From the NCBI GenBank assembly GCA_013695385.1, contig JACDAN010000175.1, positions 1 to 35,583 of the forward strand: a stretch of DNA of 35,583 nucleotides, in the 5' to 3' direction. This document shows, one piece after another, positions 21,681 to 28,081 of this stretch. The stretch is from Actinomycetota bacterium. GTDB lineage: Bacteria > Actinomycetota > Thermoleophilia > Gaiellales > Gaiellaceae. Numbering within the stretch: the stretch's first letter is position 1; every line of letters begins with the position of its first letter. The position numbers and the translations under genes are program-made. The notes under the pieces were generated by a model that was given only the letters and a program-made list of their open reading frames with translations, did not search any database and was not told the DNA's origin.

Positions 21681-21707
21681 CGCTGGCCGTTGCCGGCGGA
21701 GAAGGCC

Positions 21708-22211
21708 GTGCGTGTCTGGGGTCTAGATCATTGGCCGTACACCGTCGACGTCGAGTTTGTGCAGGGTGACGGTGGCCCAGTTGCCACCGGGGTTCTGATC
21801 CGGCGGAACTTCGCTTACGACGAGCAGCAGGGCTTCGCCGACGGCTTGGAGCTCGTACCCGTTTCGGGCCGCGATGTACGGCGGATGCCGCTAGACAGGG
21901 TGATCGCGGCTGCGCTTGCCGCCGTCAGCGAGCCGTCTTCGGCCGAGGGCTGGGCCGGCCGTGTGGGGAAGGCAATCACCCCTCGCGGCTTGCCGGAGCG
22001 CGGCCGCTCGAGCAAGTTCTACGCCCAGATCGCCAACCTCTACCGGGAGCTGGCGCAGCGCGATGTCGCTTCCCCCGTCCAGGAAATCGCGCGGCGCAAG
22101 GGTGTTCCGCCGAACCGCGTACACCAGTGGGTGCATCGCGCCCGGGAGATGGGATTCCTCGAGCCGTCCGCGCGGAGTCGCCAGAGGAAGGGGCGGAACG
22201 GTGGCGAGTAG
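21708..22211 (+). CDS. Hypothetical element protein with C-terminal HTH, upstream of integrase
   Basis: A 167-residue protein; I set the start at GTG 21708, preceded by GGAGAAG, rather than TTG 21690. The N-terminal half is beta-rich (VWGLDHWPYTVDVEFVQGD). The C-terminal about 55 residues look like a helix-turn-helix: FYAQIANLYRELAQRD, then VQEIARRKGVPPNRVHQWVH with RAREMGFLEPS. A factor of this type often sits directly before the integrase in actinobacterial elements and may act in excision or regulation. It overlaps the integrase start by 11 bp, so the two are probably co-translated. It is divergent from the RepA-like gene. Confidence 0.65.
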   Translation: MRVWGLDHWPYTVDVEFVQGDGGPVATGVLIRRNFAYDEQQGFADGLELVPVSGRDVRRMPLDRVIAAALAAVSEPSSAEGWAGRVGKAITPRGLPERGRSSKFYAQIANLYRELAQRDVASPVQEIARRKGVPPNRVHQWVHRAREMGFLEPSARSRQRKGRNGGE

Positions 22212-23239
22212 CTGGATCGCGATTCGTGTCACGCGAGCGGGCGAGAAGCGCTACCGCGTCGAGTACCGCCTTGGTGGCCGCGAGGCTCCGACCCGCTACG
22301 CCGGTTCGTTCAAGACGAAGCGCGAGGCGCTCGCCCGCAAGGCGTACGTCGCCGGTGAGCTTGCCGCGCTGCGCATCCCCGAGCTCGCGACGCTCGAGCT
22401 GAAGCCGTCGTCGACGGTGGCCGCTGCCTGCGAGCGCTGGCAGGCGTCCCGTGTCGACGTTGCCGAGGCGACCGCGATCCAGCATCGAACGGCGGTCAAC
22501 CGGGCGCTGCCGATCCTCGGCGCCCGCCGCGTTGACGAGGTCAGCGCCCAGGACGTCGCCGATCTCGTCGCCGCCCTGCACGCTGCGGGCAAGGCTCGCG
22601 AGTCGATCCGCAAGACAAAGACCGCGCTCGGAATGGTCTTCGACCACGCCGGCGTGAGCCCCAATCCGGCCCGTCATCCGAGCGTGAAGCTTCCGCGGGA
22701 AGAGGCCGAGGAGCCGAGCCCGCCCCCCGGCCGCTCACCTGGAGGCCGTCTACCGGCTGCTGCCGACGAAGCACCGCCTGCCGTTCCTGTTTCTCGACTG
22801 GTCTGGTGCTCGCGTGAGCGCGATCGACCTGACGCTCGTCGGCGACTACGACGAGCAGCGTCGGCGCATCCGGCTCCGGAAGGCGACGACGAAGACGCGG
22901 GCGGCGCTCTGGATCGAGCTGCATCCCGTGCTCGCCGATGCGCTCGAGCAGGAGCTGGGGCCGCGTGAAGACCGCGACCCCGGTCGGCGGCTGTTCGCGG
23001 GGAGCGGCGCCGATGCGCTGCGCACGTCGATCGCGAAGGCGTGTCGGGCGGCTGCGATTCCGCTGTTCAGCCCGCATGACCTGCGGCACCGCCGCGTCAG
23101 CCTGCTCCACCTTCGCGGGGTTCCGTGGGCGCGGATCGGCGAGCAGGTAGGCCAGCGCAACCTCGCGGTGACCGCGAACACCTACAGCCACGTGCTCGCC
23201 GACGAGCGTGAGCTCGACTACGCGGAGCTGCTCGCGTGA
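22201..23239 (+). pseudogene. Tyrosine recombinase (integrase), one-base frameshift in a C run
   Basis: Starts at GTG 22201. Residues about 1-60 resemble the arm-binding domain (YRVEYRLGGREAPTRYAGSF), about 65-165 the core-binding SAM-like domain (VAAACERWQASRVDVAEATA, then DEVSAQDVADLVAAL). Near 22727, in GCCCGCCCCCC, the frame must shift by one base: PSPPP is then followed by AAHLEAVYRLLPTKHRLPFL in the other frame. The catalytic domain is otherwise complete, with Arg in WSGARVSAI, HxxR in SPHDLRHR and the nucleophile Tyr in ANTYSHV. Removing one C restores about 345 residues. It lies 84 bp from the right att copy. Real mutation or a homopolymer error are both possible. Confidence 0.8.
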
Positions 23240-24887: not shown

Positions 24888-25075
24888 ACTCTCCCGTCCC
24901 GGGCTACCAAGTCGACTCTTCGGGGATCTGACGGACGCGGGCCTGGTCGGAGACGAGCGTTCTTTGGGTAGGTGATGAACGTCCTAGACGGTGAGTTTCA
25001 GTTCTCGCGCTCGGAGTTCGACTGCACCTGAGGGTGGGTTGGGGGGTACCGTCTTCGGCGCCACTGACACCTCCT

Positions 25076-25124
25076 CGCTAGCATCGCCGGGGTGCGCGTC
25101 GCCAACTCTCCGAGGACGCGTTAG
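25076..25124 (+). promoter_or_regulatory. Promoter-like 13-mer followed by a 10-codon leaderless uORF
   Basis: CGCTAGCATCGCC (25076-25088) is identical to the sequence before pcrA and contains TAGCAT. A GTG 7 nt later (25092) opens a 10-codon frame ending at TAG 25122-25124, 10 nt before the ATG of the next gene. It could be a leader peptide or chance. Confidence 0.3.
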
Positions 25125-25134
25125 CCGTCTCGTC

Positions 25135-26094
25135 ATGCTCGACCGCCGCCTACTCCTCCTCTCCTACTTCGAGCCGGACGACGTTCCGAAGCTGATTCGT
25201 GCCGTCCGCGCGACGGCGACGCCGGCCGGCACCCGGATCTACGTCGGCAGCTACGGGGTCAACGCGCCCGTGGCCCGGCAGGTACAGGAGTTGAAGCGCG
25301 GCCTGTACGCGCCCATGTTTCCCATCAAGCCGACCTCGTTCTGGAACCGGCGCAGGGTCGACGGAGCCCACGACCCACGGTACGAGGGCAAGCTGCCGTC
25401 GCTCCCATCGCTCCTGGGACTGCCCTCGAGGGATCGGCTTGCCTGGGGGAGGGAACTGGGGCGACGGTTCCGCGACGAGATGCGGATCGCAGAGGAGGAG
25501 GGGGTCCGAGTCGACGCTTGGCAGTTCGACGAGCTCGTCTCGGAGCTCAGTGGGAAGGATGGGCGACGATGGCGCGACTTCACCCGGGGCGCCCTCCACG
25601 GCCTCAATCTTGGACGCCCGGAGTTCAGCGACGGGCCGCGGGTCGGCTTCGTCTGGGCGTCGCTTCCGGCCCTCCAAATTGCGCGCCTCCCGGTCGACTC
25701 GGAGCTCGGAGCGTTCTGGCGAGCCCTGGCGAGCGCCACGTTCCGGCTGGTCGGCGAGGAGTACCCGGTGTTCGCCGGGAACCCCGCGGACGCGGCGCGG
25801 GCGAATGCGGCCGAGTACCGGCTCTTGGCCGGCTCCCGCGGCACGATCCGCCGTGAGCTCGCCGCCCGCTACATGGTCGGGATGACACCGGGGTGGCACC
25901 TGGCCCGTGGGCTCCGGGGCAACACGTCTCACTGGCCGCGCGCCCAGGTCAACCGCTGGCGCGCGAAGTTCGTGGACGAGCGCGAGCAAATCGGATCGGC
26001 GGGGTTCGGCGCGTACCACTTCAGGTTCGAGAACAGCTCGGAGCAGGTGATGAAAGACACTCTCGCCGGCCTCGCCCGGGGCCTAGATGGGTGA
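25135..26094 (+). CDS. Unrecognised 319-residue cytosolic protein
   Basis: The ATG at 25135 opens on MLDRRLLLLSYFEPDDVPKL; the longer frame from 24991 adds a low-complexity stretch that does not look coding. The pattern of short strands and helices (TRIYVGSYGVNAPVARQVQE, VRVDAWQFDELVSELSG, RVGFVWASLPALQIARL) hints at an alpha/beta, perhaps TIM-barrel-like fold with acidic residues at strand ends, as in glycosidase-like proteins. A conserved-looking tail is WRAKFVDEREQIGSAGFGAY. No signal peptide or membrane helix. Its last codons and stop lie inside the left arm of the inverted repeat at 26081-26310. I cannot assign a function. Confidence 0.75.
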   Translation: MLDRRLLLLSYFEPDDVPKLIRAVRATATPAGTRIYVGSYGVNAPVARQVQELKRGLYAPMFPIKPTSFWNRRRVDGAHDPRYEGKLPSLPSLLGLPSRDRLAWGRELGRRFRDEMRIAEEEGVRVDAWQFDELVSELSGKDGRRWRDFTRGALHGLNLGRPEFSDGPRVGFVWASLPALQIARLPVDSELGAFWRALASATFRLVGEEYPVFAGNPADAARANAAEYRLLAGSRGTIRRELAARYMVGMTPGWHLARGLRGNTSHWPRAQVNRWRAKFVDEREQIGSAGFGAYHFRFENSSEQVMKDTLAGLARGLDG

Positions 26095-26310
26095 TGCCAT
26101 GAGATCGTTCGTTCCGGGGCGCGAGCTGGCCGCTCTGGGGCGCGGCGTCAGGCCGGTGGCGATGCTGGCAGCATCGGTGGCGGACTGGCGACGTCGAAGC
26201 GGACGGTCGTGGGCGGGCGCCGCCAAGGCGCCCGGCTGGGGCCGGGAGCGGCCCAGACGCGTCAGATCGTCCATCCGGACGCGCGAGATCGTGGCATCAC
26301 CCATTTAGCC
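26081..26310. repeat. 230-bp unit with 19-bp terminal inverted repeats and internal hairpins
   Basis: Left arm 26081-26099 (GCCTAGATGGGTGATGCCA) and right arm 26292-26310 (its inverted copy) match at 17 of 19 positions; the inner 13 bp, ATGGGTGATGCCA, are perfect. Inside lie CGATGCT-GGC-AGCATCG (26160-26176) and GGGCGCC-GCCAA-GGCGCCC (26215-26233). The convergent genes on both sides terminate inside the arms: TGA 26092-26094 on plus, and TAA at 26305-26307 on minus. It could be a miniature inverted-repeat element or an extended bidirectional terminator. Confidence 0.65.
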
Positions 26311-27453
26311 TGAGAAGGCTCGGCGGAGCCGCTCGAGCCCGGTGTCCAGCTGGTCGTCGGTCACTGCGAGGGAGAGCCGGGCCCTGCCTGCACCCGACGG
26401 GCCGAACCCCTCCCCGGGCGCGAGCGCGATCCGAGACTCCGTGAGCAGACGCTCGACGGTGACGCCCTCCGGAAGCTCGAGCCAGACGTAGAAGCTCCCC
26501 TCACAGACGGGTCGTTCGATTGCGCACCCGTCGAGCACTTCGAAGACCCGGTCGCGACGCGCCTGATAGCGGTCGCGTCGCTCGAAGACCGAGTCCTGCG
26601 GGCCGGTGAGCGCGGCGATGCCCGCCTCCTGCACGGCGGTGAAGATTCCGGCTCGGGTGTGATCCTGGAGGAGGTCCAACCGCTCGACGATCTCGGAGTT
26701 GCCCACGACGAAGCCGAGGCGCCACCCGGCCATCCCGTAGGTCTTCGACATCGAGAACATCTCCACGCCCACGTCCTTTGCGCCCGGCGTGGCGAGGAAG
26801 CTCTCGGGGCTGCGCTCGTCGAACACGAGATCACCGTAGGCAAGGTCGTGCACGACGGCGGCCCCGGTCTGCTCCGCGAACGAGACCGCGTCGGCGAACG
26901 TCCCCGGCGGAGCCACGACCGCGCACGGATTGGAGGGATAGTTCAGGTAGACGGCGGCGATGTCGTCCCGAGGCGCCTCGTCGAAAGCCGGCGCCCATCC
27001 GGACGCAGGATCGAGCCGGAGGCCCACGAGCCTGGCCGCGGCGAGTGCGACGCCGGACGGGTAGTCGGGGTAGCCCGGGTCGGGGAGCAGAATCGTGTTG
27101 CCGCGCTCCGCGAGCACCAGCGCGAGCTCGACGAGCGCGGTCTTCGTCCCGGGGACGACGGCGACTTCCGTCTCCGGGTCGAGCTCCACGCCGTAGAGCG
27201 ACCGGTAGCGCTCGGCGATTGCCACACGGAGCTCGGGGAGGCCTCGAAACGGCGGATACCCGTGGGCCTGCGGCTCACTGGCAGCAGTCGCCAGACGCTC
27301 GACCACATGCCGGGGTGGGCCTACTTCCGGGTTTCCACGGCCGAGGTCGATGAGTGGCTCGCCGCTGCCTCGAGCCGCCTCCGACACTCGGGCGAGCAGG
27401 GCGGTGAAGTATTGAGGTGGAAGCCGGTCGAGTCTCGCCGGCCGTGGACGCAC
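26305..27453 (-). CDS. Class I/II PLP-dependent aminotransferase
   Basis: A 382-residue fold-type I aminotransferase. The start is taken as GTG 27453 (VRPRPARLDRLPPQYF), leaving a 10-bp gap to the upstream gene; the ATG at 27522 would overlap it. Motifs: IDLGRGNPEVGPP near the N terminus, VVPGTKTALVELAL for phosphate binding, YLNYPSNPCAVVA, VVHDLAYGDLVFDE with the PLP-contacting Asp and Tyr, the lysine loop FSMSKTYGMAGWRLGFVVG, and the substrate carboxylate Arg in GRARLSLA. The sequence resembles aspartate or LL-diaminopimelate aminotransferases; the substrate is not assigned. Downstream it ends in the inverted-repeat unit. Confidence 0.92.
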   Translation of the reverse strand: MRPRPARLDRLPPQYFTALLARVSEAARGSGEPLIDLGRGNPEVGPPRHVVERLATAASEPQAHGYPPFRGLPELRVAIAERYRSLYGVELDPETEVAVVPGTKTALVELALVLAERGNTILLPDPGYPDYPSGVALAAARLVGLRLDPASGWAPAFDEAPRDDIAAVYLNYPSNPCAVVAPPGTFADAVSFAEQTGAAVVHDLAYGDLVFDERSPESFLATPGAKDVGVEMFSMSKTYGMAGWRLGFVVGNSEIVERLDLLQDHTRAGIFTAVQEAGIAALTGPQDSVFERRDRYQARRDRVFEVLDGCAIERPVCEGSFYVWLELPEGVTVERLLTESRIALAPGEGFGPSGAGRARLSLAVTDDQLDTGLERLRRAFSG

Positions 27454-27463
27454 CTCGCGGATC

Positions 27464-28081
27464 CTAGTGCGGGAGGAGCGCCTGCACGATCCGGCCGGTG
27501 ACATCGTCGCGGTCTTCGACACGGACTACGAGTCTCGGTCCGCGGTTCGACTCCCGGCTGTCAAAGGTGAGCTCACGTGCGCCGCGTGTGGTGATCGCCA
27601 GGCTGATGTCCTCGTCCCCGCTCACCAGTGAGGTGACCTCGACGGCGCTCCAGATGCCCTGGCGCACGGGCTTCGACGACGCATAGCGCAGCGAGAAGCG
27701 CGGCGCGTTCGAGTAGGTGAGGCCGGCTTCCCGCCAGCGGTGCTCGTCGACTCGTCGCACTTCGTAGCTCGTGCGCCTCGCCCGGCTTGTATGGAGGAGG
27801 AGGATCACGCTCGCCACGTTGCTCGTGAGCTTGCCGGGGTGAAAGCGCAGGTAGGTGGTCGCGACCGGCGAGCTGTTCACTCGGAGCACTTTCGCGCGGC
27901 CGTAGTTTGCGCGGGGCAGCGAAGCGGTGACATACGTGTCGGCCACTGGCTTGAACGCACGGATCTTGGCCGGAGGGTCGGTTGCGGCCGGCGCCTGGCC
28001 GGTCAGGGCCACGGTCGTGACCGTTCCGGCCGCGAGCAGCCTCCAGCCGTACCTAGTCCGTGCGGGCTCTTGGGAACGCAT
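27464..28081 (-). CDS. Secreted DNRLRE/CBM96-like domain protein
   Basis: A 205-residue exported protein. Signal peptide: RYGWRLLAAGTVTTVALTGQ with cleavage around APAAT. The mature part is a single beta-sandwich of the DNRLRE/CBM96 type: KPVADTYVTASLPRANYGRA, then VLRVNSSPVATTYLRFHPG, VASVILLLHTSRARRTSYEV, WREAGLTYSNAP and IWSAVEVTSLVSG, ending GPRLVVRVED. Such modules bind polysaccharide or act as spacers in surface proteins; here the module stands alone. It is 10 bp upstream of the aminotransferase and co-directional, but no functional link is apparent. Confidence 0.8.
   Translation of the reverse strand: MRSQEPARTRYGWRLLAAGTVTTVALTGQAPAATDPPAKIRAFKPVADTYVTASLPRANYGRAKVLRVNSSPVATTYLRFHPGKLTSNVASVILLLHTSRARRTSYEVRRVDEHRWREAGLTYSNAPRFSLRYASSKPVRQGIWSAVEVTSLVSGDEDISLAITTRGARELTFDSRESNRGPRLVVRVEDRDDVTGRIVQALLPH

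What the first reader, a model, noticed from the sequence alone, without database searches (positions are those of the whole stretch)
26081..26310. 230-bp structured inverted-repeat unit holding both neighbours' stop codons
19-bp terminal arms with 17 matches enclose two strong internal hairpins. Both convergent genes end inside the arms, so the unit may have supplied their stop codons on insertion. Both strands also show a start-to-stop open frame bounded by the arms, as expected from the symmetry.
Basis: partly seen in the sequence, partly recalled or inferred. Interest (0 to 1): 0.6.

Follow-up and report, generated by a model that had tools for sequence, protein, structure and literature searches.

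The report
Hairpin-RNA MITE sitting on stop codons
The 220-base unit is a small mobile DNA element (a MITE) with the same ends as full-size IS982-type jumping genes of related soil bacteria; it landed on a TAG stop codon without harming either neighbouring gene, and its single-stranded fold has been conserved in only one strand, which hints at an RNA role in how it spreads.

Summary
The unit (element 26086-26305 between TA dinucleotides) is one of about ten copies or fragments in this genome and recurs in other genera of the same family. It is a non-autonomous MITE. Its ends match ~980-bp insertion sequences in relatives that encode an IS982-family transposase. The target is CTAG, with TA (possibly CTAG) duplicated.

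Related proteins and the reconstructed empty site show that neither gene was truncated: the aminotransferase ended at the same place on TAG before insertion, and the other C-terminus changed from GLA* to GLDG*. Elements often sit exactly on stop codons (22 of 48) and regenerate them, because TA|G restores TAG; this is largely what a CTAG target plus selection against insertions in genes would give. The 73-aa frames are not coding.

Unexpected: 21 copies share a two-hairpin fold with strong covariation. Shared stem changes are G-U rather than A-C in 33 versus 5 pair columns, private changes 14 versus 16. So one strand, RNA or ssDNA, is conserved in spreading lineages but drifts in resident copies. 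Its function is inferred, not shown.

The parts
26084..26085 (.). left TA of the target (part of CTAG 26083-26086)
   Evidence: CTAG flanks both ends of all 12 complete IS copies; empty sites
26086..26305 (+). MITE body, 220 bp; the strand whose RNA fold is conserved is the window + strand
   Evidence: alignment A1 of 21 copies; covariance model hits 26084-26307 at 198.8 bits on + and 41.6 on -
26085..26101 (+). left terminal inverted repeat (pairs with 26290-26306), AGATGGGTGATGCCATG
26290..26306 (-). right terminal inverted repeat
26105..26141 (+). 5' side of the lower stem (pairs with 26250-26286)
   Evidence: helices 2-4, 98-99% of cells paired
26142..26195 (+). internal hairpin 1
   Evidence: 14 of 18 pairs in helices 6 and 7 with compensatory changes
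26199..26249 (+). internal hairpin 2
   Evidence: 13 of 14 pairs in helix 10 with compensatory changes
26250..26286 (+). 3' side of the lower stem
26306..26307 (.). right TA of the target
26092..26094 (+). TGA stop of the plus gene, supplied by the arm (before insertion a TGA one codon earlier)
26305..26307 (-). TAA stop of the aminotransferase: target TA plus one element base (TAG before insertion)
24991..26094 (+). convergent neighbour, 367 aa, no Pfam match
26305..27522 (-). convergent neighbour, class I/II aminotransferase (PF00155)

Best explanation
The unit is a copy of a non-autonomous MITE family of Gaiellaceae-like actinobacteria, mobilised in trans by IS982-type transposases whose elements carry the same ~18-bp ends. 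Transposase cuts at GATGG...CCATC and joins the element into CTAG, duplicating at least the TA. CTAG often carries a TAG stop codon, sometimes of two tail-to-tail genes at once. Because the element begins with G, TA|G recreates TAG, and TGA in the arm catches one other frame, so such insertions are nearly harmless and persist. Shown: the repeat family, matching IS ends, the transposase family, CTAG targets, empty sites, conserved stop positions and a one-strand fold with covariation. Inferred: mobilisation in trans, and the reason for the fold. My preferred reading is that the element is transcribed and its folded RNA (or one-strand ssDNA) helps copies that go on to spread, while resident copies decay neutrally.
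For: Copies in the own genome at 82-97% identity, some with internal deletions, and in other genera (TIR pattern in 31 of 103 family genomes, reversed-pattern control almost zero). Pairs of the same ends ~980 bp apart bracket a DDE transposase scoring 141-142 bits against NF033520 IS982, cut-off 130. All 12 complete IS copies lie between C|TA and TA|G. Clean empty site of an IS in G082/G085, where CTAG is the shared stop of two convergent genes. Empty sites of MITE copies with the TAG at the same place (L012 versus G008, L002 versus G119, L083 versus G075). Stop at the target in 22 of 48 two-ended elements, against 66 of 295 control CTAGs (p = 0.001) and 66 of 219 outside genes (p = 0.04). Fold: 95% of cells paired, 41 pairs with double changes against 23 in shuffles, score 0.361 against 0.163. 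Strand: RNA -148 versus -113 kcal/mol; strand-neutral GU:AC columns 33:5 shared, 14:16 private.
Against: No IS982 transposase was found in the own genome, a 91.5% complete assembly. No transposition was observed. The MITE interior does not derive from the IS interior; only the ends match. RNA orientation relative to the gene that ends there is 8 sense to 13 antisense, so no host role as a 3' UTR is visible. TA versus CTAG duplication is not fully separable. The stop-codon excess over non-genic CTAG is weak. In single sequences the GU bias is often not significant.
Confidence: 0.82

Rival explanations
1. An ordinary MITE whose stable hairpin serves host genes as a bidirectional terminator or mRNA 3' end, so host selection keeps the fold.
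For: Many copies lie directly behind stop codons, and this one lies between convergent genes. Published MITEs such as SPRITE and BOX influence transcripts (PMC3049150, PMC10969869).
Against: Orientation relative to the gene is random (8:13), yet only one strand's pairing is conserved. Private changes in resident copies do not respect the fold (GU 14, AC 16). No U-tract follows the arms.
Confidence: 0.15
2. The covariation is only a mutational product of a DNA palindrome: template switching makes the arms match, with no function of a single strand.
For: Long palindromes are corrected by template switching (general knowledge). Private changes look neutral.
Against: Correction would give Watson-Crick pairs on both strands alike, not a 33:5 excess of GU over AC in shared columns or a consensus energy of -127.6 versus -68.5 on the opposite strand.
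Confidence: 0.12
3. The unit carries a small protein gene (73 aa, either strand) that happens to lie between inverted repeats.
For: Frame 0 is open in 15 of 21 copies on + and 18 of 21 on -; 17 of 21 lengths keep the frame.
Against: Substitution rates by codon position are flat (0.290, 0.285, 0.286) and third-position GC is 0.77, against roughly 0.85-0.95 in neighbouring genes. Other subfamilies do not keep the frame.
Confidence: 0.02
4. An IS630/Tc1-type MITE (RUP-like, TA target) rather than an IS982 partner.
For: TA duplication and CTAG preference resemble IS630-type elements (general knowledge).
Against: No DDE_3 protein in the own genome. The elements bearing these ends encode an IS982-family transposase.
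Confidence: 0.04

Closest known systems
IS982-derived MITE of the Cardinium endosymbiont (PMC9769881)
   Same: About 240 bp, no transposase gene, ends like an IS982-family element, many copies
   Different: Different phylum. No stop-codon target or conserved one-strand fold turned up in the passages I looked up there. There it is thought to derive from the IS; here only the ends match.
IS982 family (PMC7335449)
   Same: About 1 kb, single transposase of ~288 aa, terminal inverted repeats, short direct repeats (2-10 bp in the family)
   Different: The ends here start TAGATG (or GATG) instead of the AC found in 57 of 69 registered members; strict CTAG target
RUP, BOX and SPRITE repeats of pneumococcus (PMC3049150, PMC2229807)
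   Same: Short non-autonomous repeats with TA termini, stable predicted RNA folds and open frames on both strands in some
   Different: Unrelated sequence; RUP is linked to an IS630-type element (general knowledge).
CIR repeats of Caulobacter and Brucella (PMC2229807)
   Same: Two-armed RNA structure conserved between genera
   Different: No TIR and no known transposase; GANTC motif. Here there is a closing TIR stem and a CTAG target.

Membership tests
bacterial MITE | short, multi-copy, no transposase gene | tested here: met
bacterial MITE | terminal inverted repeats shared with an autonomous element | tested here: met
   18-bp TAGATGRTTGATGCCACG ends on IS and MITEs
bacterial MITE | target site duplication and empty sites | tested here: met
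   CTAG on both sides; single CTAG or TAG in empty sites; exact length (TA or CTAG) inconclusive
bacterial MITE | mobilised in trans by the partner transposase | not testable with these tools
   needs a transposition assay
IS982 family (partner element) | IS982-type transposase | tested here: met
   NF033520 at 141.9 and 140.9 bits, cut-off 130; over cut-off in 11 of 103 genomes
IS982 family (partner element) | length about 1 kb, one ORF | tested here: met
   964-1004 bp, ORF about 288 aa in most copies
IS982 family (partner element) | inverted repeats beginning 5'-AC (57 of 69 registered members) | tested here: not met
   ends begin (TA)GATG or (TA)GAGG; not universal in the family (PMC7335449)
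IS630 / RUP | IS630-type (DDE_3) transposase with these ends | tested here: not met
   none in the own genome; elements with these ends encode IS982-type proteins
Rfam RNA family | match to a curated covariance model | tested here: not met
   none

The most novel reading that the evidence does not exclude
The MITE family carries a non-coding RNA, or a one-strand ssDNA fold, that is needed for propagation by an IS982-type transposase: selection keeps the fold in source copies and is lost once a copy is resident.
Probability: 0.3. Interest if true: 0.75.

Novelty: new variant of a known kind. Interest (0 to 1): 0.52.

Why it matters
MITE hairpins are usually taken as a passive result of palindromic DNA. 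Comparing shared with private G-U and A-C changes separates selection on a single strand from palindrome symmetry, and here it points to selection acting only on lineages that spread. The element also shows how a mobile sequence can live in gene-dense bacteria: a CTAG target and G-starting ends let it sit on stop codons without changing the proteins.

Tried and rejected
IS630 partner, suggested by the TA flanks: no DDE_3 in the own genome, and the partner proved to be IS982-type. Known RNA family: no Rfam match. Coding ORFs: rejected by flat codon positions. Truncation of neighbours: rejected by relatives and joined flanks. RNA sense orientation relative to the gene: no bias. The covariance-model search of the whole family failed on the machine, so only the own genome was searched with it. 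A first alignment of empty sites in mixed orientation was meaningless and was redone by BLAST. A codon-position GC gene call was ambiguous between strands and was replaced by a trained codon model.

Full report
Observation. The window is contig C206 of a 2.34-Mb, 91.5% complete assembly. The fold is far beyond shuffled sequence (z = -7.2). Exact edges are TA 26084-26085, element 26086-26305, TA 26306-26307.

It is a repeat family. The own genome holds three full-length copies (this one, C132 at 94%, C211 at 82%), internally deleted copies (C91, C278, and a 69-bp hairpin at C40) and pieces at contig ends (C236, C55, C277). BLAST finds copies in G001, G021, G025 and G032, with weaker pieces in G043 of the same order. 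The end pattern TAGATGGNTGATGCCA occurs in 31 of 103 genomes of the family with almost no hits of the reversed control. A stricter 18-bp end is found in 4 of the other ~295 sampled genomes of the class, among them a 170-bp element in G272. Several MITE subfamilies share the ends but not the interior.

Partner element. Four pairs of these ends stand ~980 bp apart and enclose a 288-aa transposase with DDE_Tnp_1 that passes the IS982 cut-off of NCBIfam. Eight more complete IS copies, found through the transposase, have related ends. All 12 are flanked by C before the left TA and G after the right TA. IS982 members registered so far mostly begin with AC and have direct repeats of 2-10 bp (PMC7335449); these do not begin with AC. 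The own assembly has no IS982 transposase, so the copies here may be stranded; multi-copy IS are often lost from assemblies.

Target and stop codons. In G080 an IS lies at a CTAG that in G082 and G085 is unoccupied and is the overlapping TAG of two convergent genes; both stops survive on the two sides of the IS. For MITE copies, empty orthologous sites show the TAG at the same place (L012 versus G008, L002 versus G119, L083 versus G075), while L003 and L007 align to unoccupied orthologous regions that are less clear at the junction. In the window, joining the flanks gives GGGGC CTAG CCTGA: the aminotransferase then ends at TAG with an unchanged C terminus, and the plus gene ends GLA* instead of GLDG*. 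Aminotransferase relatives end within one or two residues of the same position. With a trained codon model, 22 of 48 two-ended elements have a called gene stop exactly at the target, 25 counting stops inside the arm. Control CTAGs are at stops in 66 of 295 cases, inside genes in 76 and elsewhere in 153. The excess is clear against all CTAGs (p = 0.001) but weak against those outside genes (p = 0.04). So a CTAG target plus loss of harmful insertions explains most of it. The flanking base outside TA is C on both sides in 23 of 48 elements and on one side only in 16, which favours a TA duplication with CTAG preference over a strict CTAG duplication but does not prove it.

No protein. In 17 frame-keeping copies the rates of difference by codon position are 0.290, 0.285 and 0.286, and GC is flat. 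The frames are open because of composition and symmetry.

The fold. Alignment A1 holds 21 full copies. The consensus has a closing TIR stem, a lower stem and two hairpins. 95.1% of cells pair (shuffled 83.8%), 41 pairs have changes on both sides (shuffled 23), and the covariation score is 0.361 (shuffled 0.163, slid versions at most 0.078). The copies are related, so the shuffle is not a probability, but the slid control keeps relatedness. Every copy folds better as RNA on this strand (window -148 versus -113 kcal/mol; consensus -127.6 versus -68.5). G-U and A-C are the same event seen from opposite strands, so their ratio tests single-strand selection. With pairs chosen without regard to strand, columns with a shared change are 33 GU to 5 AC (p = 4e-6), and columns with a private change are 14 to 16 (Fisher p = 5e-4) (RNAalifold pairs plus symmetric loops: 32:2 and 15:15). 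Columns are not fully independent events. In single sequences of other subfamilies the bias usually has a definite direction but is mostly not significant.

Reading. A dsDNA cruciform or template switching cannot favour one strand. A host role in 3' UTRs would predict a preferred orientation, which is absent (8 sense, 13 antisense). What remains is a single-strand form, RNA or ssDNA, that matters for copies that leave descendants. This is inference; neither transcript nor transposition was observed.

Known kinds. It works like a MITE and meets the tested MITE criteria. The closest relative in kind is the IS982-derived MITE of Cardinium (PMC9769881). Predicted RNA folds in MITEs, and two-armed folds conserved between genera, are known for other repeats (PMC3049150, PMC2229807). 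I found no paper in the held library on a CTAG or stop-codon target for IS982, which is a limited search. Hence: new variant of a known kind.

Noticed in passing
L019 (G000:C18:9123) and L023 (G000:C136:18110): Solo arms of ~20 bp between two CTAGs (CTAGATGGTTGATGCCACGATCTAG and CTAGAGATCGTGGCATCAACCATCTAG), like remnants of a nearly complete internal deletion or excision.
   Followed up: no
L171-L178 and L111-L114: A group of IS982-type elements with ends TAGATG.. or TAGAGG.. instead of AC.., all at CTAG; probably an unregistered IS982 subgroup of Thermoleophilia.
   Followed up: partly
window 21690-23239: C-terminal part of a phage-type integrase (PF00589, 22814-23239) behind a frame with a helix-turn-helix match; looks like a broken integrase region.
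   Followed up: no
L116, L117, L118, L129, L242, L101, L107, L235: Other MITE subfamilies (166-170 bp) with the same ends fold into one long hairpin, several with regularly placed internal loops and similar CAAG / GCGCnG motifs; possibly a second RNA architecture.
   Followed up: partly
L062, L147, L126: In three copies a TAG stands directly outside the element end (TAG|TAGATGG or ATAG|AAGATGG), so two stop codons lie in tandem or nearly so.
   Followed up: no
G000:C236, C55 and C277 contig ends; G092 C7, C14, C20, C67, C96: Contigs end inside copies of these elements, so copy numbers are underestimated and the missing IS in the own genome may be an assembly effect.
   Followed up: no
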